NCBI GenBank assembly: GCA_021772565.1
Contig: JAJFLR010000017.1
Coordinates: 22,788 to 86,787, forward strand
DNA length: 64,000 nucleotides
Direction of reading: 5' to 3'
DNA from: Opitutales bacterium
GTDB lineage: Bacteria > Verrucomicrobiota > Verrucomicrobiia > Opitutales > JAJFLR01
Made by a program: the position numbers and the translations under genes. Shown here piece after piece: positions 1 through 12,450 of this stretch (positions are counted from its first letter, which is position 1; the number at the start of each line of letters is the position of its first letter). The notes under the pieces are model-generated. The model was not told the DNA's origin. It saw only the letters and a program-made list of their open reading frames with translations, and made no database searches.

Positions 1-815
1 CTAGGGAAAAATAAATAGATAGTTTCTTTGGTTCGATAGTGATAGTCAGGATCCCTTCCCATGAAATTGATTGCGCGTGTGTATGCTTCGACACCTATTT
101 CACTCATCGGGCTAATTCTTGCCTTCTTCATACCATAGGACGAAAATGCATCTTTGTCGCCCGATACTAAAGCAACGCCACTGGTATTGCCATTGGGAAT
201 AACTTTGAGTCCTGTACCATGGGCATCAACTGGGACACACAGCTCACCAGTAACCAAACAAACTGCACTCTTTTTTTTCTGCGGTGCATTTTGCTTTTCA
301 GTATTTTGTTGCTTAACCCACCACTCTTTGAGTTCAGGCCATTGAACTGCGAGACCGTCGAAATTTTCGACTTGAAATGTAATCCAATCAGCAGCTGATA
401 CTTTTAACTCATTTAATGCACTAATTGTTTGTTCATCAGTTTCAGTGTGAGTCGATTCCAGAAATGCGACAATCGCTAATATGCCCGGATGTTGAGTGTC
501 TGCCGCAATTGATTTCATCTGTTGCAGAAAAAGTTTCTGCGTTTCGATCGTGCGTTCTTTTACTTCAGGATTAAACCCGGGTAAAACCCGATCCAGAGTG
601 TCTGCACCAAGGCATGCAATGGCTCTAGAATTACGAGAGGGAATTTTAGAAATGTCTAATGTGAGACCCTCTTTGCCGTTCCCTAAAGGTGATATGCTTT
701 TATAAATACCGTTAATATCGATATTAATGGAGAAGCGAATTTTTTGAGAAGTAAACTCGATAGCATCGAGAAGATGCTCTCGCTGGGCAAATTTATGAAG
801 CTCTTGAAAAATCAT
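1..815 (-). CDS. cas8c: Cas8c (Csd1), large subunit of type I-C Cascade; partial, runs off the left edge
   Basis: The minus strand is open from ATG at 815 to base 1 without a stop, giving about 271 residues of N-terminal sequence (full-length Cas8c proteins are around 550-600 aa). It begins MIFQELHKFAQREHLL. Near the cut end it carries the Csd1-type stretch CLVTGE, then SGVALVSGDKDAFSSYG, then SPMSEIGVEAYTRAINF, which I recognise as the conserved core of the family. The start overlaps the cas5c stop in an ATGA arrangement, so translation is probably coupled. In type I-C, Cas8c recognises the PAM and nucleates the R-loop as part of Cas5-Cas7-Cas8 Cascade. The remaining genes (cas7c, cas4, cas1, cas2) and the array would be expected left of this window; that is inference from usual I-C order. 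Confidence 0.9.
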   Translation of the reverse strand, partial: MIFQELHKFAQREHLLDAIEFTSQKIRFSINIDINGIYKSISPLGNGKEGLTLDISKIPSRNSRAIACLGADTLDRVLPGFNPEVKERTIETQKLFLQQMKSIAADTQHPGILAIVAFLESTHTETDEQTISALNELKVSAADWITFQVENFDGLAVQWPELKEWWVKQQNTEKQNAPQKKKSAVCLVTGELCVPVDAHGTGLKVIPNGNTSGVALVSGDKDAFSSYGMKKARISPMSEIGVEAYTRAINFMGRDPDYHYRTKETIYLFFP

Positions 816-1534
816 GCTTCAGCCTTTTTGAAAAGGTTCATTCGCATTTTAGTTACGTCCAAAACTCCTTTTTCCAATTTTGCAGGAGCAAACAAGAATT
901 TAGCTTCTTTGAATAATGGTTTAATAACAGCATCCGAACTGAGATCGCGTTCCATATCGTAAAGCATCAATCCCAAATCGCGGCTGTCATCAAACACCTG
1001 TTCGTCGCCATTTGGTTTTGAGAAAAAAGCCGCGCACTCTTTAATTCCCAAATAGGGTTGCCTGAAACATTGCCCTTTAATACATCTACGTTCAAACATA
1101 TCCTGATATTTCTTCGGATTGTCTTCTGCATTCGGATTACGAACAGTCATACTGGCTTCAATGATGTATGCAACATCGCGCAACATAATACTATTTCGCT
1201 GAGTGCGGTTTTCACCCTGAATATCGTTTCGTCCGGCAGAATCGACAAAATAGGGCTGGAAATTCGTCGGGTCTTTTTTTATTTCATCAGGCTTACGACG
1301 ACTAATCACACCTTGAATTTCATTTCTACGAACAGATATTTGTTGAATCGGTTTTAAGACGAGAATCCGGTCGATTTCATAAAATATTTGTGGTTTCCAG
1401 AATATCGCTTCTAATACACCTCGTGCTGCCGAAGGTGTCATGACCGGGTAACTCAGTCGCTCGACTTTAAATTCAGGCGAAGTAAACAGAGCGTAGTCAC
1501 TCCAGACTTTAAGCGATATTGGAATTTTTTTCAT
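812..1534 (-). CDS. cas5c: Cas5c (Cas5d), crRNA-processing endoribonuclease of type I-C
   Basis: This 240-aa protein has the typical Cas5 N-terminus (KVWSDYALFTSPEFKVER, then YPVMTPSAARGVLEAIFW), where the RAMP fold begins. In type I-C systems, which lack Cas6, this subunit cuts pre-crRNA at the 3' base of the repeat hairpin and leaves an 11-nt 5' handle, then stays in Cascade. That matters here because a matching hairpin plus 11-nt handle lies upstream at 1833-1861. The gene follows a 49-aa ORF by 8 nt and overlaps cas8c by the ATGA motif, so the three are probably one transcript. No clear Shine-Dalgarno precedes the ATG at 1534. Length is normal for the family. Confidence 0.92.
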   Translation of the reverse strand: MKKIPISLKVWSDYALFTSPEFKVERLSYPVMTPSAARGVLEAIFWKPQIFYEIDRILVLKPIQQISVRRNEIQGVISRRKPDEIKKDPTNFQPYFVDSAGRNDIQGENRTQRNSIMLRDVAYIIEASMTVRNPNAEDNPKKYQDMFERRCIKGQCFRQPYLGIKECAAFFSKPNGDEQVFDDSRDLGLMLYDMERDLSSDAVIKPLFKEAKFLFAPAKLEKGVLDVTKMRMNLFKKAEA

Positions 1535-1542
1535 ATTGGTGT

Positions 1543-1692
1543 TTATATTTTTTCTAATTCCAAAATTTTATTGTCAATATCTAAAAATGGTTGATTAAAC
1601 TTTTTGCTCAAATTCGTAATGACTACAAAATTTTCATTATCATCTTTAATTATGGCTAAATCATGTTGAATAAATATCCAAATTTTTTTCAT
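1543..1692 (-). CDS. Uncharacterised 49-aa protein, first ORF of the cas5c-cas8c transcription unit
   Basis: ATG at 1692 opens a 49-residue frame ending in TAA at 1543-1545, only 8 nt before the cas5c ATG. The protein starts MKKIWIFIQHDLAIIKDDNE and ends DIDNKILELEKI. It is charged, with no signal peptide or membrane helix, and could form a beta hairpin followed by a short helix. It is in the same orientation as the cas genes and directly downstream of the promoter that the neighbouring crRNA-like element appears to target. I do not recognise a family, and standard type I-C operons have no gene here. It could be a small Cas-associated regulator, a toxin or leader peptide of a CreTA-like module, or a chance ORF in AT-rich DNA. 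The amino-acid composition looks protein-like, but the evidence is modest. Confidence 0.5.
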   Translation of the reverse strand: MKKIWIFIQHDLAIIKDDNENFVVITNLSKKFNQPFLDIDNKILELEKI

Positions 1693-1728
1693 TTTCTTTT
1701 AATTATTTAAGGTTTTTAAAATTTAATC

Positions 1729-1763
1729 TAGCAACAATTAGTAGAACAAAAATTTTATGTCAA
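1729..1763 (-). promoter_or_regulatory. Candidate promoter of the cas5c-cas8c unit, overlapping a pseudo-crRNA target site
   Basis: A perfect -35 hexamer TTGACA lies at 1763-1758 on the minus strand. Seventeen nt further is TAATTG (1740-1735), a poor -10; TAGATT at 1730-1725 is a better hexamer but too far from the -35. Immediately after the -35, minus-strand bases 1744-1729 read CTACTAATTGTTGCTA, which matches the first 16 nt of the spacer-like segment at 1832-1817 except at positions 6 and 12. The match begins CTAC with TTC ending on its first base, so a TTC PAM is present if the guide is counted from its second base. Cascade bound here would cover the promoter of the 49-aa ORF, cas5c and cas8c. 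Confidence 0.6.
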
Positions 1764-1765
1764 TT

Positions 1766-1800
1766 AAAAACCCCAAAAAAAATCAAATTTTTTTTGGGGT
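1766..1800 (-). terminator. Rho-independent terminator after cas3 and the crRNA-like element
   Basis: On the minus strand ACCCC plus A8 pairs with T8 plus GGGGT around a 5-nt loop, followed directly by TTTT. The U-tract lies only on the minus-strand side, so it ends transcripts coming from cas3 and the pseudo-repeat/spacer. It is 3 nt from the TTGACA element of the next promoter, which separates cas3 from the cas5c-cas8c unit. Confidence 0.85.
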
Positions 1801-1861
1801 GATATAATTCGCTTAATAGCTACAATAAGTAGGTTTCAATCCGCTCATCAACATTGATAAG
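1801..1861 (-). ncRNA. crRNA-like regulatory RNA: pseudo-repeat (1833-1861) plus spacer-like segment (1801-1832)
   Basis: Minus-strand 1861-1844 folds as CTTATCA-ATGT-TGATGAG (7-bp stem with one T-G wobble). It is followed by CGGATTGAAAC (1843-1833), an 11-nt tail nearly identical to the type I-C crRNA handle, whose usual ending is TGGATTGAAAC/T. Thirty-two nt of spacer-like sequence follow, beginning CTACTTATTGTAGCTATT, and then a Rho-independent terminator replaces a second repeat. The first 16 nt match the cas5c promoter region (1744-1729) with mismatches only at 6 and 12, the positions that do not pair in a Cascade R-loop. Family knowledge: crRNA-like RNAs with degenerate repeats and short promoter matches (CreA antitoxins, Cas-regulating RNAs) direct Cascade to repress rather than cut. 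No separate promoter was convincing; the RNA may be released from the cas3 3' UTR by Cas5c. Confidence 0.78.
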
Positions 1862-1909
1862 AAATAAAATATCAATGAAAATTAAATTTTCTTACAAGTG
1901 AATATTGTT

Positions 1910-4144
1910 TTATAAAATATTTCCTAGTGCAATCGCTTTATTATTAAAACCAATAAATTTATTATATGCTACATTCTCAGTAACAAAGCAGCCGTTACTT
2001 AATTCTTGTATCAATGAATTATTACATGCCTCGCGAATGACAGAGCTACGAAGATTAATTGAATATGGCCCCATTTGACGCTGCAGTTTTCTATCCGGCG
2101 GTAAATCTCGGAAATTGCACAACTCTAAAATTAACTTTTTTCCCTTTTCACTCCATGGAGCCAATACTGAATAAGAATCATCATTTTCAATCCAACGATA
2201 GTCGCGAGCTATCTGTTTAAACTGCAAACGTTCTGCACTACGTTCGATTGTTTTGGCATCTAAATTTGCACTGTTATAAAGTAGTCGAAAGTACTTCTGG
2301 ATCGTATTAGCCGAAACTTGTGTTTGTTCATCATGTAAAAGCCCAAACGCGGTATTAGTTCCTGTAGTGTAAACGTTGTCACTAACGATCTTATCATTTT
2401 CAATTTCAACTACAAAAACCGGCAATGGTTCCTTTGATTCGCTATTTCGATTGCAGCGCCCGGCTGTCTGAATTATGGAATCGAGTGGTCCTTTTGAACG
2501 ATACGCCAGCGGAAAATCTACATCAACTCCGGCTTCAATTAATTGTGTGGAAAATGTTATACAACGCTGCTGAGTTTTCAATCGCATTTTAATCTCTGCC
2601 AAAACTTCCAAACGGTGCATTGGGCACATCAAAGTCGAGAGATGAAAGACGCCATCGGAATTATTACTTAAATCACGGAATTGTCGCCAGGCTGCTTGCG
2701 CTGATTTCCGTGTATTAAAAACAGCTAAAACTTGAAACGCACAACCAGATTTTTTTTCTTTTTCAATAAGTTCTTCGCAAAATGATTCAATTGACAACGG
2801 AGATGGCTCATTTCGTTTGATAATACGTGTTCGCTGGAATTCTGCATGATCAGACAAATTCATCGATTCGGGAATTATTTCTCTCATATTCTCAAAACCA
2901 TCTGTTAGATTCAGTGATTTCTTGAATGCGGGTTGAGTAGCGGTGCAAAAGACCAGGCTAGTCCGACCAATTTCTACTAGAGCATTTAAACGTTTGAGCG
3001 TTGGATTCAATAATCGAGAAGGGAATGTTTGACATTCATCAAATATAATAACGGCGTCCAATAATCGATGGACCTTACGGCAGGCAGAGGTTCGATTACT
3101 CATCAAGCTTTCAAAGAATTGAACATTTGTCGTGACAATAACTTCAGCGTTCCAGTTTTCCGAAGCCCGCTTTTCCCAAATCTCTGTTATTTCATCTTTA
3201 TCCGAATTATCAGATTTCCGACGCCATTCAGCTAATGAATGATGTTCAAGAACAACTCCTTCTCCCAGTGCCCCACTAATAACTTTAGCATTTTGTTCAA
3301 TAATACTTGTGTAGGGTATGACATAAATTATGCGTTCAAATTTATGCTTAATCGCATGTTCAAGTGCAAATGCTAACGAAGATAATGTTTTGCCACCGCC
3401 TGTCGGTATTGTTAGTGAAAAAATACCCGATTCTGTTGTAACTCCTTGAGAGAAACATTTTTTAAATAATTGAGTGCGGATTTTATCGATACTATTCTCT
3501 TGTTTAAACTTACTGACATATTTACGTAAACGTTTGCTCAATTCAGTCATAGCAATTGGCAAGTAAGGATTAATTGGCTTACCTTCTGTTTCTCTAAAGT
3601 GCCGTTCGGTATCGAGAAAATCCGCATCGACCAGAGCAGAAAAAATTATTCGTGTAGCAATTTCCCTATCAATCTCAGACAACTCGTCGAAGCTTTGGGG
3701 TTTAGTTAGTTTTTTATCACTGTCATCTTTAAAGGTCTTCCAGCAGGTCTCAAAAACTGTACTATTTGATATTAATTTATCTTCCAATTCTTTCGCATAA
3801 TCATCAGTCCAATTTTGTAATCCCATATGATGACCGGCAATACAGTTAGCCATCAATGGAGATTGCCATTTGTGATTTTGATAGAACATCCCAGCCCCAA
3901 CCCATGCATGAGGAGTTGTTGAAGATTTGTCTTTAAGGTAATTCTGAAACTGATCCTGATATTTACCTAAATCATGCAACATGCCAAGCAATCGACCTGT
4001 TTTACTCCATGGAGTGTTTTTTAGAAAGTCAGCAGCTAATTTTGCAACTTCTTCAGCATGATGACTTAGTAATTGCCATTTACTTTTGTCTAATATTTTT
4101 TCTTTGTTTGAATCGTTCGCAGTATGAGCATAAAACGGCATCAA
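1910..4144 (-). CDS. cas3: Cas3, HD nuclease-helicase of the type I-C system
   Basis: The 744-aa protein has the full Cas3 order. The N-terminal HD nuclease has SHHAEEVAKLAADFL near residue 28, LHDLGKYQDQFQNYL near 55 and IAGHHMGLQNW near 104. The helicase has Walker A TIPTGGGKT near 247, the DEAD-like box FDECQTF near 370, TATQP (motif III), QLIEAGVDVDFP and QTAGRCNRN (motifs V-VI). Cas3 is recruited by Cascade after R-loop formation and degrades the non-target strand 3' to 5'. The tandem MM start follows a very AT-rich 280-bp leader. All key residues appear intact, so the nuclease should be functional. The gene ends about 50 bp before the pseudo-repeat, placing that element in its 3' UTR. 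Confidence 0.96.
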   Translation of the reverse strand: MMPFYAHTANDSNKEKILDKSKWQLLSHHAEEVAKLAADFLKNTPWSKTGRLLGMLHDLGKYQDQFQNYLKDKSSTTPHAWVGAGMFYQNHKWQSPLMANCIAGHHMGLQNWTDDYAKELEDKLISNSTVFETCWKTFKDDSDKKLTKPQSFDELSEIDREIATRIIFSALVDADFLDTERHFRETEGKPINPYLPIAMTELSKRLRKYVSKFKQENSIDKIRTQLFKKCFSQGVTTESGIFSLTIPTGGGKTLSSLAFALEHAIKHKFERIIYVIPYTSIIEQNAKVISGALGEGVVLEHHSLAEWRRKSDNSDKDEITEIWEKRASENWNAEVIVTTNVQFFESLMSNRTSACRKVHRLLDAVIIFDECQTFPSRLLNPTLKRLNALVEIGRTSLVFCTATQPAFKKSLNLTDGFENMREIIPESMNLSDHAEFQRTRIIKRNEPSPLSIESFCEELIEKEKKSGCAFQVLAVFNTRKSAQAAWRQFRDLSNNSDGVFHLSTLMCPMHRLEVLAEIKMRLKTQQRCITFSTQLIEAGVDVDFPLAYRSKGPLDSIIQTAGRCNRNSESKEPLPVFVVEIENDKIVSDNVYTTGTNTAFGLLHDEQTQVSANTIQKYFRLLYNSANLDAKTIERSAERLQFKQIARDYRWIENDDSYSVLAPWSEKGKKLILELCNFRDLPPDRKLQRQMGPYSINLRSSVIREACNNSLIQELSNGCFVTENVAYNKFIGFNNKAIALGNIL

Positions 4145-4423
4145 TTAAATAATTGGTATTAATAATAATAAATTTTTTGAACTCTATATCATTATTTGAA
4201 AATTAATAAACAAGCTCGTATCATACATAGATAAAATGATAATTAATATTCAAACTAATGATCAGGTGAACATTTTTCATCAATAATAGTTTATGAGTCA
4301 ATCATGTGTTCCACTGTTCTAATTTCAACCACTATTTCAAAGTTGACTGTGCTCTCGTTATTATCCAGATTTTTACTATAATATTTTTAAAAATCTTATC
4401 ACTCAAACCTCAATTAAATACTC

Positions 4424-5060
4424 ATGAAAAACAAATTAAGTCATTACGTTATTGGATCTCACAGTCTAGCAATCATGGCTGTTGTTGCAAGCATCTATTC
4501 AAGTTCACAAGGACTATCACGGCATTAAATTTGAGTTCGGGTTAGCCGGATTAACATTTAAACCGGATGGTATTGGCACCAGTGGTTCTTCAACTGTCGA
4601 TCAAGATATTTCGCAATCCAGTTATGTTGGTGATAAATTTAGTTTTTTGGTTAACGGAAATAATCTTAATGTTAGTGGCTCAGGTGATACATATTTTTAT
4701 TCAATCACTGCCACATCAGGATCGACAATATATTATAGTGTCGGACAGACAGTAAATGGGTTAGCCGATACAGGCAATGGAACCGGCAGTATCGTATCAA
4801 CAGGTACAAATGTGGGTGCTTGGACTGTCGATCGTCCCAACGGAGCCATTGGTTTTGAAAATGCCGAGGGTGAAACCGGCTATATACGAGTTTCATGGGT
4901 AGCAGCAACACAGACATTAACTATATTGAGTGGTGCATTTGAAGACGCGGGAGGTTCGATATTCGTAACTGCTGTACCAGAACCTTCAACATCGGCGTTA
5001 CTCGGGTTAGGGGCAATTGGCGTGGCCTATTATCGTCGATTGTCTGGAAACAATTCGTAA
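4424..5060 (+). pseudogene. Frameshifted PEP-CTERM surface protein
   Basis: Two reading frames together make one PEP-CTERM protein. ATG at 4424 starts MKNKLSHYVIGSHSLAIMAV, a signal peptide of the same type as the intact paralogues (compare YSVGSTSLVVISGVLG in the 5.2-5.9 kb gene), but this frame stops at 4526. The body lies one frame away, from about 4482 to 5060, and contains YSVGQTVNGLADTGNGTG, WTVDRPNGAIGFENAEGE and the C-terminus AVPEPSTSALLGLGAIGV followed by YYRR. A one-base indel between about 4482 and 4526 separates the halves, and no homopolymer is present to explain it as slippage. PEP-CTERM tails are membrane anchors cut by exosortase during export. The body alone would lack a signal peptide, so the gene is probably inactive unless the assembly is wrong here. 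Confidence 0.75.
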
Positions 5061-5206
5061 TTCATAATTTTGCCAGCATCAAAGTAAGAACTGCCATTTC
5101 TATTGCATAATAACTAGTTTTAGATGCAAATACATATCAAACGAAACTTAGCATAGTTTGTTAAATTTTGATTCAATAAAGTCTTAATTGTTATTGTTTA
5201 TTTATA

Positions 5207-5911
5207 TTAATTCTTTACTCGGGTTTTAATTCCCTTACGCCGCCGATAGTATACAAGACCCAGCGCGCCGAGTCCCAGTGCAGCCGTGAATTCAAGTGGT
5301 TCAGGGATAGGTGCTGTTACCGTGATTGACGCTCCCGGTGTTGATTCAATACTACCACCAAGTATCGTCAATGTCTTTGCCGCCACACTCCAGCTTACAT
5401 TGAAGAAGCCGAGTTGATTTTCGCCTGTTTTAATCCCAATAGCGCCTATTCTATCAGTTGTCCAGGCACCCTGAGCGCCACCGGAATCACCTCGATAGAC
5501 ATAACCGTAACCTGTATCACCTCCAGATCCATTGACGCTTGAGCCAATCGAATAAAATATTGGTGATGGTGGAAATCCAGTACCCTCAGTAAATATGCCA
5601 CCAACCAAACAAATTCTGTTACCACTAGCAGGATCACCATAAAATTTGAAATTATCCGTCGTATTGGTAGTAGAAACATCGAAAAGGTAAGTGGCTGAGT
5701 TTCCGGCTGTTCCACCACCACCAGCAAGCAAAGTTTGATCGACTTGAGGACCATCCAGGTTAAGGTTGACGACAACGGCTGAGCATATAGCTGTTGACCC
5801 TAATACACCAGATATCACTACCAGACTAGTTGATCCTACAGAATATTTCTGTAAGCGGTGTTTTGCAGGTTTGCATAATTCAGAGTTGTTAGTGACATTT
5901 ATAGTTTTCAT
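5207..5911 (-). CDS. PEP-CTERM sorting domain protein
   Basis: This 234-aa exported protein has an N-terminal signal (residues about 19-45, containing YSVGSTSLVVISGVLGSTAI and ending at CSA) and a beta-rich body with YFDVSTTN-like strands. It has motifs shared with its paralogues at 4.4 kb and 58.7 kb: FYSIGSSVNGSGGDTGYGYV, WTTDRIGAIGIKTGENQLG and TLTILGGS. The C-terminus is PIPEPLEFTAALGLGALG followed by YYRRRK, the PEP motif, hydrophobic helix and basic tail that exosortase recognises. It is transcribed divergently from rpsP and convergently with the frameshifted paralogue. Function beyond surface or extracellular location is unknown. No exosortase gene is visible in the window. Confidence 0.85.
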   Translation of the reverse strand: MKTINVTNNSELCKPAKHRLQKYSVGSTSLVVISGVLGSTAICSAVVVNLNLDGPQVDQTLLAGGGGTAGNSATYLFDVSTTNTTDNFKFYGDPASGNRICLVGGIFTEGTGFPPSPIFYSIGSSVNGSGGDTGYGYVYRGDSGGAQGAWTTDRIGAIGIKTGENQLGFFNVSWSVAAKTLTILGGSIESTPGASITVTAPIPEPLEFTAALGLGALGLVYYRRRKGIKTRVKN

Positions 5912-6096
5912 GATTACTTTAATTTAATAGTTAACAGATGCTGTAATTTAGCGATTTCAGGTACATAAGTTTATTTAAAAGCTGACAAGCCTATCGGTTA
6001 AACAAATAGTCAGAGTTTGTCAAACATTATTTATTGTATACTTGTTAGCATATGCAAATTGACTCTTAAGATTTTTTGGAAAATAATTAAACCTAC

Positions 6097-6125
6097 TTGA
6101 CATCAAAGCATTAAAACAGTTTTGT
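6097..6125 (+). promoter_or_regulatory. Candidate promoter of the rpsP-trmD-rplS operon
   Basis: A perfect TTGACA is at 6097-6102, and the hexamer 17 nt downstream is TTTTGT, a weak -10. It lies about 45 bp before the rpsP ATG in an AT-rich 260-bp divergent intergenic region. The same pattern (good -35, poor -10) is seen at the cas5c promoter, so the organism's -10 preference may differ from the classical one. Confidence 0.35.
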
Positions 6126-6169
6126 TCTCGCCTTTTCAACACAACTAAGAGAATTATTTTATATAAGAT

Positions 6170-6730
6170 ATGGCAGTTAAAATTAGATTACAACGATTTG
6201 GATCAAAGCATTCACCGGTTTATCGTATGGTGATAGCTGATGCGAGAGCTCGCAGAGATGGCCGATCCATTGAAACAATTGGTATTTATAATCCTAAGGC
6301 CAGAGGTGCAGAAAAAGAGATAAATTTAAAGATTGATCGTATTGACCATTGGCTGAATGAAGGTGCTCAACCAACCGACACAGCAAGATCGTTGATCAAA
6401 AAAGCCAGGAAAATATTACTAAATCCTGAATTTGCCGAAAATAAAGAAGCAAAAAGTAATGCGAAAGTAGCAGAGCCGGTTGCAGAAGCTATATCTGAAA
6501 AAGTTGAAGAAACTGCTCCTGCTGCCACTGCAGAAGCTGAACCTGTAGCACAAGAGGAAAAATCTACAGAACCTGTGGCAGTCGAAAATAAAATTGAGGA
6601 ATCTGCACAAGAAACAGTCGCCGAACCCAAAAATAGTACGGAAGTAAAAGAAGATGCCGAGGAAAAAGCTGTTGAAGAAAAATCTCAACCAGATGCTGAA
6701 TCATCAACATCTGAAGACGAAAAAAAGTAG
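6170..6730 (+). CDS. rpsP: 30S ribosomal protein S16 with a long acidic/Ala-rich C-terminal tail
   Basis: The first ~80 residues are a standard bS16 ([20 protein letters not shown], then [18 protein letters not shown] sequence, [27 protein letters not shown]). bS16 binds 16S rRNA and helps assemble the 30S subunit. Residues ~100-186 form a low-complexity extension rich in Glu, Ala, Val and Lys, with repeats of EPVA and EKVEE type, which roughly doubles the usual 80-90 aa length. Similar but usually shorter tails occur in some S16 proteins; the role is unknown and the tail is probably disordered. It is the first gene of rpsP-trmD-rplS; rimM, often between rpsP and trmD, is absent. No Shine-Dalgarno is visible before the ATG. 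Confidence 0.97.
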
Positions 6731-6776
6731 ATTCAATTTTTTAATTTTATCTTATCTGTGAATTCTATCATCCGAA

Positions 6777-7466
6777 ATGAAAAGCAAATTAACCATAGAT
6801 CTACTTACATTATTTCCCGAGATGATCAGTGGTTTTATATCGGAAAGTATAATAGGTCGTGGAATAAGTAACGGAATCATCGATATTAAAGTTCACAATA
6901 TCCGAGATTGGGCAACGGATAAACATAGTATAACAGATGATCGACCTTTTGGTGGTGGCGCCGGAATGGTATTAAAGCCTGAACCATTATTTGCAGCAAT
7001 AGAAGAATTAAAAACAGATTTGTCGATCGTTATCTACCTCGCTCCCGATGGAGAAAAATTATCAACAGGCATTGCCAAAGAATTATCCGGCTCAACCCAT
7101 TTGATTTTGGTCAGTGGACATTATGAAGGAATTGATCAACGAGTCCGCGATACTATTATTGACCGAGAAATTAGTATCGGAGATTATGTTTTAACAAATG
7201 GCACTTTACCGGCAGCAGTTTTAGTAGATTGCGTTTGCCGTTACGTCCCTGGAATTTTGGGTGAAGAAAACTCGTTAGCGCAAGATAGTTTCAGTAAAAA
7301 TTTACTTTCAACACCTCAATACACGCGCCCGGCAGAATTTAGAGATATGGCAGTACCAGAAGTTTTGTTGTCAGGGAACCACGCTGAAATAGAAAATTGG
7401 CGTACAAATTACCGTAAAGAAGAAACATTAAAGAAACGTCCAGATTTAATATCAAACAGTTACTAA
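6777..7466 (+). CDS. trmD: tRNA (guanine-N1)-methyltransferase (m1G37)
   Basis: The 229-aa protein methylates G37 next to the anticodon of tRNAs for Leu, Pro and Arg, using S-adenosylmethionine, to prevent +1 frameshifting. The trefoil-knot SPOUT family motifs are all present: LTLFPEMI at the N-terminus, [18 protein letters not shown] near residue 55, [15 protein letters not shown] near 110 and the knot stretch [16 protein letters not shown] near 135. The C-terminal [20 protein letters not shown] is also typical. Length is normal. It lies 46 bp after rpsP and 2 bp before rplS, the usual ribosomal/tRNA modification cluster. Confidence 0.97.
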
Positions 7467-7468
7467 AT

Positions 7469-7831
7469 ATGAATCCAATTATAGGCGAAATAACCAAACA
7501 TCAATTACAAGAAAATCGTAAAGACTTCAAAGTCGGTGACGGTGTTCAAGTCCACACAAAAGTACGAGAGGGAGACAAAGAACGTGTCCAGGTTTTTGCC
7601 GGGATTTGTATTTCAAGAAAAGGCAGTGGAATCCACGAGTCTTTCACTGTTAGACGTATTTCTTATGGTGAAGGAGTTGAGAAAGTTTTTCCGGTACACT
7701 CACCTAATATTACAAAAGTAGTTGTAGATAGAGAAAGTGTAGTAATGAGAGCTAAAATGTATTACTTACGTGATAGAATTGGCAAGCAAGCCAACAAAGT
7801 TAAAGAAAAAAGACTTGTCGACCATACTTAA
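7469..7831 (+). CDS. rplS: 50S ribosomal protein L19
   Basis: The 120-aa protein matches bL19 throughout: [20 protein letters not shown], then [40 protein letters not shown], and the C-terminal [18 protein letters not shown]. bL19 sits at the 30S-50S interface. The start is 2 nt after the trmD stop, so it is almost certainly cotranscribed and possibly translationally coupled. It ends convergently with the lipoprotein gene; no clear terminator hairpin is seen between them. Confidence 0.97.
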
Positions 7832-7859
7832 GATTTAAGCTAGAACAATTTTGGTATTA

Positions 7860-8555
7860 CTAAATGTTCTTTCTCTTCTTTGAGAGAACGTTGAAATTCT
7901 GAAACATGTAACCCAAATCCTGATGCAACTGAGTTCTATCTTCAGATTTAGATACACCTAATAAAATATATATATCATTCAGTTTTCCCAAAATGATATA
8001 TTCTCTATATGATAATAGGTTCGTGTATTGCTTATTATCAATTATCGAATGAGTTTTATGAAGATCTTCACTATAAATTTTGTAATTAAATTCAGGGGAA
8101 AATACTTTTTTTGAGTCATTGTTGTGCAACCCTCTTCGTGTCAGTTTTGTAATGATAACTTCTTTTTCCGTTCGTCTCAAATTGGTTAGCGAAAAAGGTT
8201 GTTTAATAAATATAGGTAAAAAATAAATAATTGAACTCTTATTTAAAAAAACGAACTTTTTGTGATAATGGAATCGAAGGCCTTCATTACTGACATACGA
8301 AGAATTTATCCGCGTAATGAGTTTTTTTAACTCTTTATTATCTAAATCACTTAAATCATCTGAAAGTAATTTATAATTCTCCGGAAAAAATAAATCATAT
8401 CCGGCAAATCCAACATTTTTATTTTCAATCTTATTAGCGATTACCCTATAGTCGTCACCATCATAATACAATGACGCACAAGAACTCAAAAACAATGATG
8501 ATATACAAAATATAACTATTTTAAATATGGAATTAGAAATTTCATATTTCCTCAT
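7860..8555 (-). CDS. Putative lipoprotein of unknown function
   Basis: I start this at the internal ATG at 8555 rather than the longer frame from 8621, because the shorter form begins MRKYEISNSIFKIVIFCISS followed by LFLSSCAS, a clean lipoprotein signal with a basic N-region and a lipobox ending in Cys. The mature part (~205 aa) starts LYYDGDDYRVIANKIENKNV and is rich in Lys, Asn and Tyr, with no recognised domain. It should be anchored to a membrane by its lipidated Cys. It stands alone, convergent with rplS and divergent from the AsmA-like gene. The family is not recognised. Confidence 0.6.
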   Translation of the reverse strand: MRKYEISNSIFKIVIFCISSLFLSSCASLYYDGDDYRVIANKIENKNVGFAGYDLFFPENYKLLSDDLSDLDNKELKKLITRINSSYVSNEGLRFHYHKKFVFLNKSSIIYFLPIFIKQPFSLTNLRRTEKEVIITKLTRRGLHNNDSKKVFSPEFNYKIYSEDLHKTHSIIDNKQYTNLLSYREYIILGKLNDIYILLGVSKSEDRTQLHQDLGYMFQNFNVLSKKRKNI

Positions 8556-8772
8556 AAAAGCTAAATCAAATAATATTTTTAAAGTTTGAAGTCTATTAAA
8601 GTCGAAATAAAGGAATAACAATTTTTACGTTTACTCATAAGTGACTAATTAAATATAAGTTGGAACAAGCAAGTTAAAAAAAATTTCAAATGAATTCCAA
8701 ATTATATAGCCGGTTAATTGACTTTCATATAGTCAACATTTAGCTTCTTAAAAAAATATTTAGAAATATATT

Positions 8773-11700
8773 ATGAAAAAACATCCAATTTTAATTACCC
8801 TGTCAGCAATAGTAATAATTTTTGCTGTCGCATTTATCGTTGTTCTAAATCCCACTGTTCAAAAACTGACTTTATTAAAGATTCTAGGAGACACTCCTGA
8901 ACTTGATATCGATATAGATTATTTTAAAGCCGGATTTAGTGATACAGAAATTAATGAAATTAAGATTGCTTATAAAAATTCTCAAATTTCAGTCAAAAAA
9001 ATTGAAATCGAATATGCGATATCACCGACTCTGTTCTCAGATAAAATTTCAATTAGCAAAATTATATTCGCTGACGTGCTTATAGACCTGAGAAAAGAAG
9101 AATTCTCTGAGACTAAAGCAACCGATACATCAAATAATATTGAGCAGACAGAATTAAGCAATGATCAGAAATTTGATTTTAATGGTCTTCTTAGTTTAAC
9201 CGATATTGGATATCAATTTGAAATTGATAATGTTCATATTTCTGGAAAATTATTATTACCCGATAATAAAAATGCTGTGTTCACTCTCACTGCTGGTAAT
9301 ATCAAACCAAATCAAACAGGAATTGTTTCCTATAATTTAAAATATTATGACATCAATGCATCAGCTCCAATTGAAAGTATTACATGTACCGGTGAAATTA
9401 ATTTATCACAGAATGAAGCATCAGGTTTTTCAAATATCAATATGACAACTAACCTCATAGCTTCCAGATCTTCTGTTGAGGATGCCTGGAAACTAGAAGC
9501 AAATCTAGAAAACAATAAAGAACTGAAAAAAGAAATTTATAATATAAAATTAACTAAAGATGATCATAGCATTGCTCAATTTGATGGAGAATTTGATAAC
9601 GCTTTGAAAAACTTTTCAGGCAAATATTCAATCGATGCTACTGATAAAGAAATGGTGTTTTTTTATTCTGAAAAAAGTATTCCGGAATTAAGTTTGAACG
9701 GAAGTGGTAATATAAAATTCAACTTGAATGAAATGACAAGCGAGATTAATAATCAATTTTCATTCGAAGCTGAACAACTCAACTCATTTTGCCCTGATCT
9801 AAATTTTGTCAAAAAATTAGCCTGTAAATTTGAAAGTGATATTTCAACAAGCAAAACTCAACTGGTAGTTAATAAAGTCGACTTATCTGTTACTGAAAAC
9901 GACCAGACTGAAATAATAAAATTAAAATTAAATGATCCTTTAACCATTAGCTGCAACAACAATACTATACCCGATATTAAAGATGGCCAGTTAACATTGA
10001 ATATCAATGCATTATCTTTAGATTGGATAGATGCATTTATCCCTGATTACAAAATTACAGGTGATCCATTAACGACAAATTTTGTACTCAGTCACAAAAA
10101 TAGTGTAATCACATTCGGAGCACCTCAAAATGTTGCAATCAATAATATTAATGTCAGTCAGGAAAATAGAAAAATATTAGATTCAGTTACACTTCAGTTA
10201 AATCCTATGTTAACATATCAGGAAGGAAAAGCTGAAGCCATTGTAGATAATTTCAAAATTGCCATTAAAAATCAGGATATTGCAACTTTGGAATTTATAG
10301 TATCCAGTGATTCAATCAACAGTGATAACAAATCATTTGTGGCTACTGGAAATGCAGTGATAAATTTCCAATTTCTGGCCAGTGAAAACTTACCTGATAA
10401 CATTCAATCAACAGTTAAAAATTTAGACAAGTTAACTGCTAAATTTGATATACAAGGGGATGAGAACGTTTTTAAGATAAATGAGCTATTGCTAAAAATT
10501 ATAGATAAAAATGAAAAATCCCTTGTTAATATTAAAAACTCAAAAGCCTTCTCTATTGATTATAACGAGATTAAACTTGTTGGTAATAATAGTCCGATTG
10601 AATTATTAAAAATAAAGATAAATGATCTACCTATTAATTATTTGGATCCGCTATTAAAAGATTTCAAATTAGAAGGAGATAATCTCAATGTTGACCTATC
10701 TCTTCAATATGATGAACAAAAATTTTCACTTACTCCAAATAAACCTATTCAAGCTGCCAATATTTCTGTTAGTAACAATACTCAAAAACTAATCAACAAT
10801 ATTAGCTTTAGTCTGGAACCTACAATAAAACTTTCACTGAATAATGCTGAAATAAAACTCAATAATCTAAATATCATTAGTAGTGAAGGAACGATTGCAA
10901 CTGGAAGTACGGAAGCATATGTCATCTTGAAACCTGAAATCAGTCCAAAATCCTTAAAGTCTAAGATCGATGTAAATATCGCTAAATTAATTAAACAACC
11001 CATTTTTGAACCAACTAATGAAATTAATGAAGGTATCTTAACTTTTAATACGAATGTCAGTTTCGATAATAACATTAATGCTAAAGTTAATATTGAAGTC
11101 GATAGGCTAATATATGCAGATAGCCCTGAAAAAGAAAATAACGCGACGATAAATATCTCACTGACACAAAATAGTAACGGTGATGTTTCAATAAACGCTC
11201 CAATCGAACTAAATAGCATTCAAGGGACTTCAGACTTGTTGATGTCAGCCAGTTATAAATCTAATAACGATGTTCAGACAATAAAACTTGATGTCAATGG
11301 CAACAAAATATTCATGGAAGACATCCAGAATATAGCCGGAATATTTACTTTACAAAGCATCAATACACCAAATGAAACTATTAGCGAGAACGTTTCAGCA
11401 GATCCAATACCACAATATGCCAAACACTCTTTCTGGCATGGTTATGAGGGCGAAATAAACTCAAATATAAAGGAAGTCATCCTACCTGGTAATTATATCA
11501 TAAGTGATATTGTTCAAAAATCTATAGCTACTAAAGACAAGTTAACTTTAGAAAAACTTGAAGCGAAATTAGGTGATGATCCGATAACACTTACTGCAGA
11601 CGTTATTTTTGATAACACGGTTATTAATGCGTATTCTACTAAAGGCAATATTGTATTGAGTGACTTTCAAGCAGGAGATTTTTTCAGAAAATCAGATCCG

Positions 11701-12450
11701 GATACCTTGCCACCCTTTGAAGGTGATGTAAATTTATCAGCAAATTTTCATGGAAGTGCAACTGACATAGCATTAATTCACGAGAAATTAATGGGAGATT
11801 TTAAATTGGTAAGTAAAAGTGGGATTTTTAGAATGCCAGATGATACTGAACCAGAACCTCAACCGGCACTTTCAGGACTTGGCTTCCTTGGAGATAAACT
11901 AAAAATTAAAGAATTGAGTTCTAATAATTTAAGTAAATCGATTGATAAAATAAAAAGTTACGTAGAAAATTTTAATTACGATCATTTTGAAATTATTGGT
12001 AGACGTGATAAATCCCTCGACTATCAACTCACAAGTATAAATTTAGTCAGTCCGGAAATTTATTTTAAAGGTAATGGTAAAATATTTTATAGAGAAAATG
12101 TAGATTTCAAAAAATATAAAATTGAATTTCCGGTATTGATTGGAGGTAAAGGTGAATTCGCCAGTGAGCTTGATAAAATAAACTTAGTTTCAAAACAACA
12201 AAATGATTTAGGCTTTTTCATTGGTCCTAATTTCACCATTAAAGGTACTGTTGGAAAACCGTCATTTAGAGAACTCTTTCTTAAAGTCATCGGTGCCCAA
12301 CTTGGATTAAATAAACTAAATATATTTCAGAAAAAAAATAACTTAGTTGAGGAGGAACAACATATTGATGAAGGAACTGAAAATAAAGAAGAAGATAAAA
12401 TTGATAAGATAAATAATCTGTTAAATAATTTACCTTTCAAATTAAAATAG
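8773..12450 (+). CDS. AsmA/TamB-like large inner-membrane-anchored protein
   Basis: The 1225-aa protein has one N-terminal membrane helix (residues ~7-27, ITLSAIVIIFAVAFIVVL) followed by a very long, repetitive, beta-rich periplasmic region with many short strands separated by Asn/Asp turns. The C-terminal third (about 880-1190) has the AsmA-like pattern: KLGDDPITLTADVIFDNT, an amphipathic LSANFHGSATD region, and IGPNFTIKGTVGKPSFRELF close to the end. Proteins of this superfamily form hydrophobic grooves thought to bridge membranes for lipid transport; the link here is by architecture, not by strong motif. The last ~25 residues are charged and helical. It overlaps ruvB convergently by 9 bp. 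Base composition is even more AT-rich than its neighbours. Confidence 0.6.
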   Translation: MKKHPILITLSAIVIIFAVAFIVVLNPTVQKLTLLKILGDTPELDIDIDYFKAGFSDTEINEIKIAYKNSQISVKKIEIEYAISPTLFSDKISISKIIFADVLIDLRKEEFSETKATDTSNNIEQTELSNDQKFDFNGLLSLTDIGYQFEIDNVHISGKLLLPDNKNAVFTLTAGNIKPNQTGIVSYNLKYYDINASAPIESITCTGEINLSQNEASGFSNINMTTNLIASRSSVEDAWKLEANLENNKELKKEIYNIKLTKDDHSIAQFDGEFDNALKNFSGKYSIDATDKEMVFFYSEKSIPELSLNGSGNIKFNLNEMTSEINNQFSFEAEQLNSFCPDLNFVKKLACKFESDISTSKTQLVVNKVDLSVTENDQTEIIKLKLNDPLTISCNNNTIPDIKDGQLTLNINALSLDWIDAFIPDYKITGDPLTTNFVLSHKNSVITFGAPQNVAINNINVSQENRKILDSVTLQLNPMLTYQEGKAEAIVDNFKIAIKNQDIATLEFIVSSDSINSDNKSFVATGNAVINFQFLASENLPDNIQSTVKNLDKLTAKFDIQGDENVFKINELLLKIIDKNEKSLVNIKNSKAFSIDYNEIKLVGNNSPIELLKIKINDLPINYLDPLLKDFKLEGDNLNVDLSLQYDEQKFSLTPNKPIQAANISVSNNTQKLINNISFSLEPTIKLSLNNAEIKLNNLNIISSEGTIATGSTEAYVILKPEISPKSLKSKIDVNIAKLIKQPIFEPTNEINEGILTFNTNVSFDNNINAKVNIEVDRLIYADSPEKENNATINISLTQNSNGDVSINAPIELNSIQGTSDLLMSASYKSNNDVQTIKLDVNGNKIFMEDIQNIAGIFTLQSINTPNETISENVSADPIPQYAKHSFWHGYEGEINSNIKEVILPGNYIISDIVQKSIATKDKLTLEKLEAKLGDDPITLTADVIFDNTVINAYSTKGNIVLSDFQAGDFFRKSDPDTLPPFEGDVNLSANFHGSATDIALIHEKLMGDFKLVSKSGIFRMPDDTEPEPQPALSGLGFLGDKLKIKELSSNNLSKSIDKIKSYVENFNYDHFEIIGRRDKSLDYQLTSINLVSPEIYFKGNGKIFYRENVDFKKYKIEFPVLIGGKGEFASELDKINLVSKQQNDLGFFIGPNFTIKGTVGKPSFRELFLKVIGAQLGLNKLNIFQKKNNLVEEEQHIDEGTENKEEDKIDKINNLLNNLPFKLK

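What the first reader, a model, noticed from the sequence alone, without database searches (positions are those of the whole stretch)
1729..1861. A crRNA-like RNA predicted to make Cascade repress its own cas operon
Seen: on the minus strand a hairpin (CTTATCA-ATGT-TGATGAG) is followed by an 11-nt CGGATTGAAAC handle, the format Cas5c produces in type I-C. The next 16 nt (CTACTTATTGTAGCTA) match 1744-1729 (CTACTAATTGTTGCTA) at 14 of 16 positions. The mismatches are at positions 6 and 12, exactly those flipped out in Cascade R-loops, and the match ends at 16. The target lies directly after a TTGACA box and before the 49-aa ORF, cas5c and cas8c. Known: short partial guides (CreA, Cas-regulating RNAs) allow binding without Cas3 cleavage. 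Inferred: autorepression, making the system self-guarding against loss. Caveat: a TTC PAM abuts only if the guide starts at its second base (mismatches then at 5 and 11); otherwise the flank is GTT.
Basis: partly seen in the sequence, partly recalled or inferred. Interest (0 to 1): 0.95.

Follow-up and report, generated by a model that had tools for sequence, protein, structure and literature searches.

The report
Self-repressing RNA of type I-C Cascade
Inside its own CRISPR gene cluster this bacterium carries a lone CRISPR-like repeat followed by a short guide-like sequence that matches the DNA just ahead of its cas5 gene, so the RNA made from it is predicted to make the Cascade complex switch down its own production, and the same pairing recurs in related bacteria with the same kind of CRISPR system.

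Summary
The 11-nt handle equals the end of the host's own CRISPR repeat, outside the window. Guide and target match at all 14 positions of 1-16 other than 6 and 12 (0 of 30,000 shuffled guides reach this). An intrinsic terminator follows the guide.

In 128 type I-C loci, 15 of 35 solitary repeat-end sites outside cas genes have such a target nearby, against 4 of 291 decoys. In those 15 pairs position 6 matches in 2 and position 12 in 4, neither used for selection. All 15 targets are preceded by TTC (8) or G-pyrimidine-pyrimidine (7), a flank also not used. The two flank classes split on one branch of the Cas5c tree, so the window's GTT is probably its clade's PAM.

Best reading: a CreR-type autorepressor of cas5-cas8-cas7-cas4-cas1-cas2. 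CreR is reported for I-B, I-E and V-A; the listings I searched showed no I-C case. Some relatives place the target before PIN-domain or small membrane-like genes instead, as in CreTA/CrePA guards, and the window's 49-aa orphan ORF leaves that rival open. Transcription, processing and repression are untested.

The parts
1910..4144 (-). cas3 (HD + helicase)
   Evidence: NCBIfam TIGR01587 and TIGR01596 above cut-off
1844..1861 (-). stem-loop of the degenerate repeat (7 pairs, one of them G-T; loop of 4), directly before the handle
   Evidence: sequence; fold of 1762-1866 z = -3.8, but the stem with part of the handle alone z = -1.3
1833..1843 (-). 11-nt handle CGGATTGAAAC, identical to the end of the host CRISPR repeat
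1817..1832 (-). guide CTACTTATTGTAGCTA
1770..1800 (-). intrinsic terminator, likely end of the predicted small RNA (and of cas3 read-through)
   Evidence: 14-pair stem, T tail; 1 found, mean 0.1 in shuffles
1758..1763 (-). TTGACA, likely -35 box of the cas5 operon
   Evidence: sequence; no clear -10
1745..1747 (-). GTT, predicted PAM
   Evidence: flank classes across loci
1729..1744 (-). target (protospacer) of the guide, mismatches at 6 and 12 only
1543..1692 (-). 49-aa orphan ORF, first ORF after the target
   Evidence: no homolog but itself; no family
812..1534 (-). cas5c
   Evidence: TIGR01876 145.8 bits, cut-off 85
1..815 (-). cas8c, 5' part (runs out of the window; cas7, cas4, cas1, cas2 and a 2-repeat CRISPR follow outside)

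Best explanation
[quoted passage not shown] Shown by sequence: a handle identical to the host repeat's, a stem abutting it, a guide followed by a terminator, a target matched at 14 of 14 positions other than 6 and 12, and the same pairing pattern in other type I-C loci. Inferred: the RNA is made (from its own promoter or from the cas3 3' end), cut by Cas5c after the stem, and loaded into Cascade; Cascade then opens about 16-17 nt, too few to license Cas3 cleavage, and blocks RNA polymerase. Loss or occupation of Cascade, for instance by many crRNAs or an anti-CRISPR, would then raise cas expression.
For: Host handle identity and rarity. Window guide-target run of 14: 0 of 30,000 shuffles, 1 of 3000 local 17-mers. 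In 128 loci, 15 of 35 solitary handle sites (at least 10/11, outside cas genes) have a run of 10 or more, against 1 of 18 sites with 9/11 and 4 of 291 decoys; a looser first count that kept sites in cas genes and near-overlapping targets gave 14 of 136 against 10 of 822. Positions 6 and 12 match in 2 and 4 of 15 although not used in selection; flanks are TTC in 8 and GYY in 7 of 15, the four decoys' flanks are neither; at runs of 7-9 the flank is TTC in 5 of 9 handle sites and 2 of 83 decoys. The handle follows the host repeat where that differs: TGGATTGAAAC in L161 and L210, TGAGTTGAAA in L084. Flank classes split on one Cas5c branch. 18 of 21 loci with a cas3-cas5 gap of 100 nt or more hold a site (10 strong, 8 weaker or doubtful). 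L088: TTGACA-16-TATTAT with the target on the -10, starting 21 nt before an in-frame ATG of cas3. L217 and L220: target 61 nt before cas5; L205 (weaker): 139 nt. Terminator. The seed rule 1-5 and 7-11 with 6 and 12 free is the one measured for I-B CreA (PMC8501985, passages); 11-nt handle of Cas5d crRNAs (PMC5965380, passage).
Against: No RNA or expression data. No recognisable -10 at the window's target and no recognised promoter for the RNA. A 49-aa ORF lies between target and cas5. In several relatives the target lies before toxin-like genes and not cas genes, so the family as a whole is not purely CreR. GTT is not the TTC PAM described for I-C; GYY was defined after seeing the data, and no spacer match confirmed it. 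Only 7 of 16 pseudo-repeat stems score above the 95% point of random sequence, and for the window the scorer prefers another, longer pairing. L220's handle differs by one letter from its host's. The window's own family holds only this genome in the collection, so guide-target drift between close strains could not be tested.
Confidence: 0.76

Rival explanations
1. CreA-type guard: the RNA holds down a toxin, the 49-aa ORF, so that loss of Cascade releases it; cas5-cas2 repression is a by-product of sharing the promoter.
For: The 49-aa ORF is the first ORF after the target. Relatives show targets before PIN-domain genes (L038, L042, L145, L210; Pfam) or 62-70-aa membrane-like ORFs (L039, L040, doubtfully L204). 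L136, L100 and L162 also have small ORFs between target and cas5.
Against: The ORF has no homolog among 5.8 billion proteins and no family. L217 and L220, and the weaker L205, have the same geometry without such an ORF. The small ORF of L100 and L101 also stands in L103 (57% and 48% identity), where no handle site passed the survey, so sense-strand small ORFs need not be guarded toxins.
Confidence: 0.15
2. A decayed CRISPR repeat with a chance match to nearby AT-rich DNA.
For: The region is AT-rich (GC 0.366 in 1-2000); weaker runs arise easily (8 or more in 9.8% of shuffled guides). The repeat stem alone folds no better than many shuffles.
Against: Run of 14 in 0 of 30,000 shuffles and the same pattern, with free 6 and 12 and consistent flanks, across loci.
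Confidence: 0.04
3. A solitary repeat that merely titrates Cas5c/Cascade, like phage RNA anti-CRISPRs (Racr).
For: Solitary repeat units are the format of Racrs (PMC10651486, start of abstract in the listing).
Against: It sits in the host's cas cluster and carries a guide with a matched target; a titrator needs none.
Confidence: 0.03

Closest known systems
CreR, cas-regulating RNAs of types I-B, I-E and V-A (passages in PMC13131331 and PMC12737573; primary paper recalled, not held)
   Same: crRNA-like RNA, limited pairing to a cas promoter, predicted autorepression
   Different: type I-C, so Cas5c in place of Cas6 would process it; single repeat plus terminator just after cas3 on the sense strand; GTT flank; small ORF before cas5
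CreTA of haloarchaeal I-B (PMC8501985, PMC9458426)
   Same: seed 1-5 and 7-11 with 6 and 12 free; one-repeat creA with terminator as in H. hispanica
   Different: target here precedes an orphan ORF and cas5; no shown toxin
CreTA of Acinetobacter I-F (PMC10097628)
   Same: sits between cas3 and the first Cascade gene; guide pairs over about 17 nt; a related locus without it lacks that intergenic region
   Different: two repeats, mini-ORF toxin, CC PAM, different subtype
CrePA (KilA-N toxin; PMC12737573 passages)
   Same: RNA-guided Cascade repression of a nearby promoter
   Different: no protein toxin family found beside the window's target; relatives of the window show PIN-domain genes in that place

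Membership tests
CreR (cas-regulating RNA) | ectopic degenerate repeat with the host's 5' handle | tested here: met
   11 of 11 handle letters, 8 of 20 upstream positions equal to the host repeat
CreR (cas-regulating RNA) | partial complementarity, seed 1-5 and 7-11, to DNA ahead of cas genes | tested here: met
   target 1729-1744 lies before the 49-aa ORF and cas5c
CreR (cas-regulating RNA) | PAM beside the target | tested here: inconclusive
   GTT, not TTC; GYY flanks are confined to one side of the Cas5c tree; no protospacer confirmation
CreR (cas-regulating RNA) | target is an active cas promoter | tested here: inconclusive
   TTGACA present, no clear -10; activity not testable
CreR (cas-regulating RNA) | not coupled to a toxin | tested here: inconclusive
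   49-aa orphan ORF of unknown activity
CreR (cas-regulating RNA) | RNA expressed, processed, represses cas | not testable with these tools
   needs RNA sequencing and reporters
CreTA/CrePA | toxin gene or toxic RNA under the target | tested here: inconclusive
   no Pfam or NCBIfam family in the 49-aa ORF; toxicity not testable
Type I-C CRISPR-Cas | cas3, cas5c, cas8c, cas7c, cas4, cas1, cas2 and an array | tested here: met
   for the proteins (cas5c, cas8c, cas7c, cas1c above I-C-specific cut-offs); array
Type I-C CRISPR-Cas | no cas6 | not tested
   none of the seven ORFs given to one search is cas6; the rest of the genome was not searched for it

The most novel reading that the evidence does not exclude
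Type I-C systems of Verrucomicrobiota, and of at least one planctomycete, carry an undescribed, recurrent layer of crRNA-like regulators in the cas3-cas5 gap or before cas3: some make Cascade repress its own operon (as here), others make it hold PIN-domain or small membrane toxins in check, and their targets reveal a clade, including the window's, whose Cascade reads a G-pyrimidine-pyrimidine PAM in place of TTC.
Probability: 0.6. Interest if true: 0.9.

Novelty: new variant of a known kind. Interest (0 to 1): 0.8.

Why it matters
It would extend RNA-guided autorepression to type I-C, a common CRISPR subtype, where Cas5c and not Cas6 makes the guide. A 2025 review asks whether CreTA-like mechanisms exist in other CRISPR types and whether CrePA-like systems with other cellular targets exist (PMC12737573, passage); the loci listed here make that directly testable. 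The regulatory targets also offer a way to read PAMs of uncultured systems whose phages are unknown.

Tried and rejected
Rfam found nothing convincing in window 1-12000 (two matches far below their gathering scores, elsewhere) or at the tRNA-like stretch of L045 (ARAGORN). Protospacers for PAM confirmation: the arrays of L136 and L101 against phages gave three near-identical Gordonia-phage rows at E 0.8 and nothing; 416 spacers from up to 18 listed loci on the window's side of the tree gave no match at E < 1e-3 to another fetched locus; two pieces of the host's single spacer gave none in viral contigs. A survey centred on Planctomycetota could not be run. Structure prediction was not used: nothing here depended on it. 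A first null with 10 seed positions was weak; the run statistic replaced it. Weak or failed cases: L085 and L101 have no significant target; L039, L040 and L145 rest partly on the TTC bonus, and L145's best run is another site without it; L205 has a run of 9; L203 and L204 are doubtful, L204 with only 9 of 11 handle letters. 9 of the 16 stems scored lie within the range of random sequence. 42 of the 128 loci had no usable repeat of their own and were scored against three common handles.

Full report
What is there. The window is G000:C33:22788-86787. On its minus strand lies a type I-C cluster: cas3, a 49-aa ORF, cas5c, cas8c and, outside the window, cas7c, cas4, cas1, cas2 and a CRISPR of two 37-nt repeats with one spacer (repeat length by eye). 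Between cas3 and the ORF lie, in order, a stem-loop (1861-1844), the handle CGGATTGAAAC (1843-1833), a guide (1832-1817), an intrinsic terminator (1800-1770), TTGACA (1763-1758), GTT (1747-1745) and the target (1744-1729).

Is it more than chance? The handle is the exact end of the host repeat and occurs 4 times in 3.57 Mb, twice in the CRISPR, once here and once inside a pilin-like ORF. Guide and target agree at every one of the 14 positions of 1-16 other than 6 and 12. Shuffled guides reach that in 0 of 30,000 trials within 1 kb on both strands; random local 17-mers in 1 of 3000. With 6 and 12 left free the pattern occurs in the genome without mismatch only at guide and target, and once with one mismatch; the reversed control pattern has 3 matches at up to one mismatch. 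The RNA from 1866 to 1762 folds better than its shuffles (z -3.8, 0 of 200), probably owing to the terminator; the repeat stem with part of the handle is not exceptional (z -1.3, 19 of 200).

Survey. I collected type I-C loci from a Cas8c family search in 387 genomes of the phylum (83 with a match), Cas5c profile searches in 372 genomes of the order (27), and in 79 (5) and 252 (35) genomes of two families, and 9 loci of titled records. Fetched stretches (one of the two; 20 each) plus those 9 gave 130. L065, without a detected cas5, and L137, the same contig as L098, were dropped, leaving 128; L172, also without cas5, stayed in. Not all genomes with a match were fetched. The own-array handle was known for 86; the other 42 were scored against three common handles.

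In these 128 loci, solitary sites outside arrays and cas genes, near cas genes, with TTGAAA and at least 10 of 11 handle letters numbered 35. Fifteen have, within 1.2 kb, a target with an unbroken run of at least 10 of the positions other than 6 and 12. The same holds for 1 of 18 sites with 9 letters and 4 of 291 decoys with 8 or fewer. A looser first count, with sites in cas genes and overlapping targets kept, gave 14 of 136 against 10 of 822. The fifteen are L005 (window), L038, L042, L045, L084, L088, L098, L100, L136, L153, L161, L167, L210, L217, L220. Of the other 20 sites, L039, L040, L145, L162 and L205 look like weaker cases, L085, L101 and L203 are doubtful, and the other 12 I take for array pieces or chance. 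In the fifteen pairs, position 6 matches in 2 and position 12 in 4, about what chance gives; 13 and 14 match in 14 and 13, 15-17 in 9 each, 18 in 5, 19 in 7 and 20 in 6. Positions 1-5 and 7-11 match by selection, and 13-17 partly so. In a set of 16, partly chosen with a PAM bonus, 6, 12 and 18 match in 4, 3 and 5. Every sixth base is the one not paired in Cascade R-loops (recalled); for I-B CreA the free 6 and 12 were measured (PMC8501985, passages).

PAM. The 5' flank was not used in the run statistic. It is TTC in 8 of 15 (background 2.0%, binomial 1e-10) and G-pyrimidine-pyrimidine in the other 7 (GTT 2, GTC 2, GCC 3; background 6.7%). GYY is a class I defined after seeing the data. The four decoys have CAT, CTG, GAG and GAT; at runs of 7-9, TTC stands before 5 of 9 handle sites and 2 of 83 decoys. 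On a tree of 126 Cas5c proteins, 12 loci with TTC and 7 with GYY targets fall on two sides of one branch (support 94/89, 98% of bootstrap trees, 0 of 500 shuffles as low). These 19 include the weaker L039, L040, L145 (TTC counted in choosing them), L162 and L205; L217 is missing because its Cas5c is cut. L153's place is unsure because of long branches. The window's nearest Cas5c relatives there are L136 (GTC), L098 (GTT) and L097 (no site). So GTT is probably the PAM class of this clade; no protospacer confirmed it.

Where the sites sit. Of 21 loci with at least 100 nt between the cas3 and cas5 frames, 18 hold a site, 10 strong and 8 weaker or doubtful; of 101 with less, 5 strong ones lie elsewhere (L084, L088, L161 and L167 before cas3, L153 before a cas7); 6 could not be judged. 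Of the three exceptions, L053's gap reads to me as a continued cas3 frame, L103 holds a small ORF like that of L100 (57% identity), and L213 shows nothing.

What the targets precede. Directly cas5: L217, L220, and the weaker L205. Small ORF then cas5: window, L136, L100, L162. cas3: L088, with TTGACA-16-TATTAT, the target on the -10 and an in-frame ATG 21 nt after the target's start, and L084. Antisense genes: PIN domain above Pfam cut-off in L038, L145, L042 and L210; 62-70-aa membrane-like (by eye) ORFs in L039, L040 and doubtfully L204, 34-36% identical. So one RNA format appears to serve both autorepression and toxin guarding.

Mechanism for the window. The target lies just after TTGACA, ahead of the 49-aa ORF and cas5c, which are 8 nt apart, and the terminator would separate this unit from cas3. 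A Cascade bound there would block cas5-cas8-cas7-cas4-cas1-cas2 but not cas3 (inferred). The RNA may come from the cas3 3' region, since no separate promoter was recognised (inferred). The 49-aa ORF has no relative among 5.8 billion proteins, so it may be a leader, an orphan toxin or nothing. I give autorepression 0.76 and a toxin guard 0.15.

Literature. CreR is summarised for I-B, I-E and V-A (PMC13131331, passage); [quoted passage not shown] CreTA is described for I-B (PMC8501985, passages and one section; PMC9458426, passages) and I-F (PMC10097628, passages), with further bacterial modules predicted whose subtypes I did not see. The I-F module also lies between cas3 and the first Cascade gene. 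CrePA has KilA-N toxins (PMC12737573). The listings, most of them capped at 20 rows, showed no type I-C case by title or abstract start. The primary CreR paper, recalled as Cell Host & Microbe 2023, is not held, so a predicted I-C case in it cannot be excluded. The 11-nt handle of Cas5d crRNAs is from PMC5965380 (passage); TTC for I-C is from the abstract start of PMC8406640.

Noticed in passing
L038, L042, L145, L210 (cas3-cas5 gap, antisense strand): PIN-domain (VapC-like) genes, above Pfam cut-off, whose upstream region holds the target of a crRNA-like RNA encoded just beyond them: candidate Cascade-guarded protein toxins in type I-C (L145's target is a weaker case).
   Followed up: partly
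L039, L040, L204 (cas3-cas5 gap, antisense strand): 62-70-aa membrane-like ORFs (by eye), 34-36% identical, after the target; in L039 and L040 the ORF ends inside the pseudo-repeat. L204 is doubtful.
   Followed up: partly
L045, between target (5327) and pseudo-repeat (5175), oriented coordinates: A stretch that looks by eye like the 3' half of a tRNA on the strand between target and RNA gene; neither ARAGORN nor Rfam calls it.
   Followed up: partly
L100, L101, L103 (cas3-cas5 gap, sense strand): A conserved ORF of about 70-90 aa before cas5 in Planctomycetota (48-57% identity), also present in L103 where no RNA site was found; no family.
   Followed up: partly
L005:6240-6360: The host CRISPR holds only two repeats and one spacer although cas1, cas2 and cas4 match their families.
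   Followed up: no
L005:5622-6113: A second, shorter copy of the cyclase-like domain of the gene at L005:3470-5233 lies between that gene and the CRISPR (by eye).
   Followed up: no
window 4482-5060 (+) and 5207-5911 (-): Two ORFs near cas3 ending in what looks by eye like a PEP-CTERM sorting signal.
   Followed up: no
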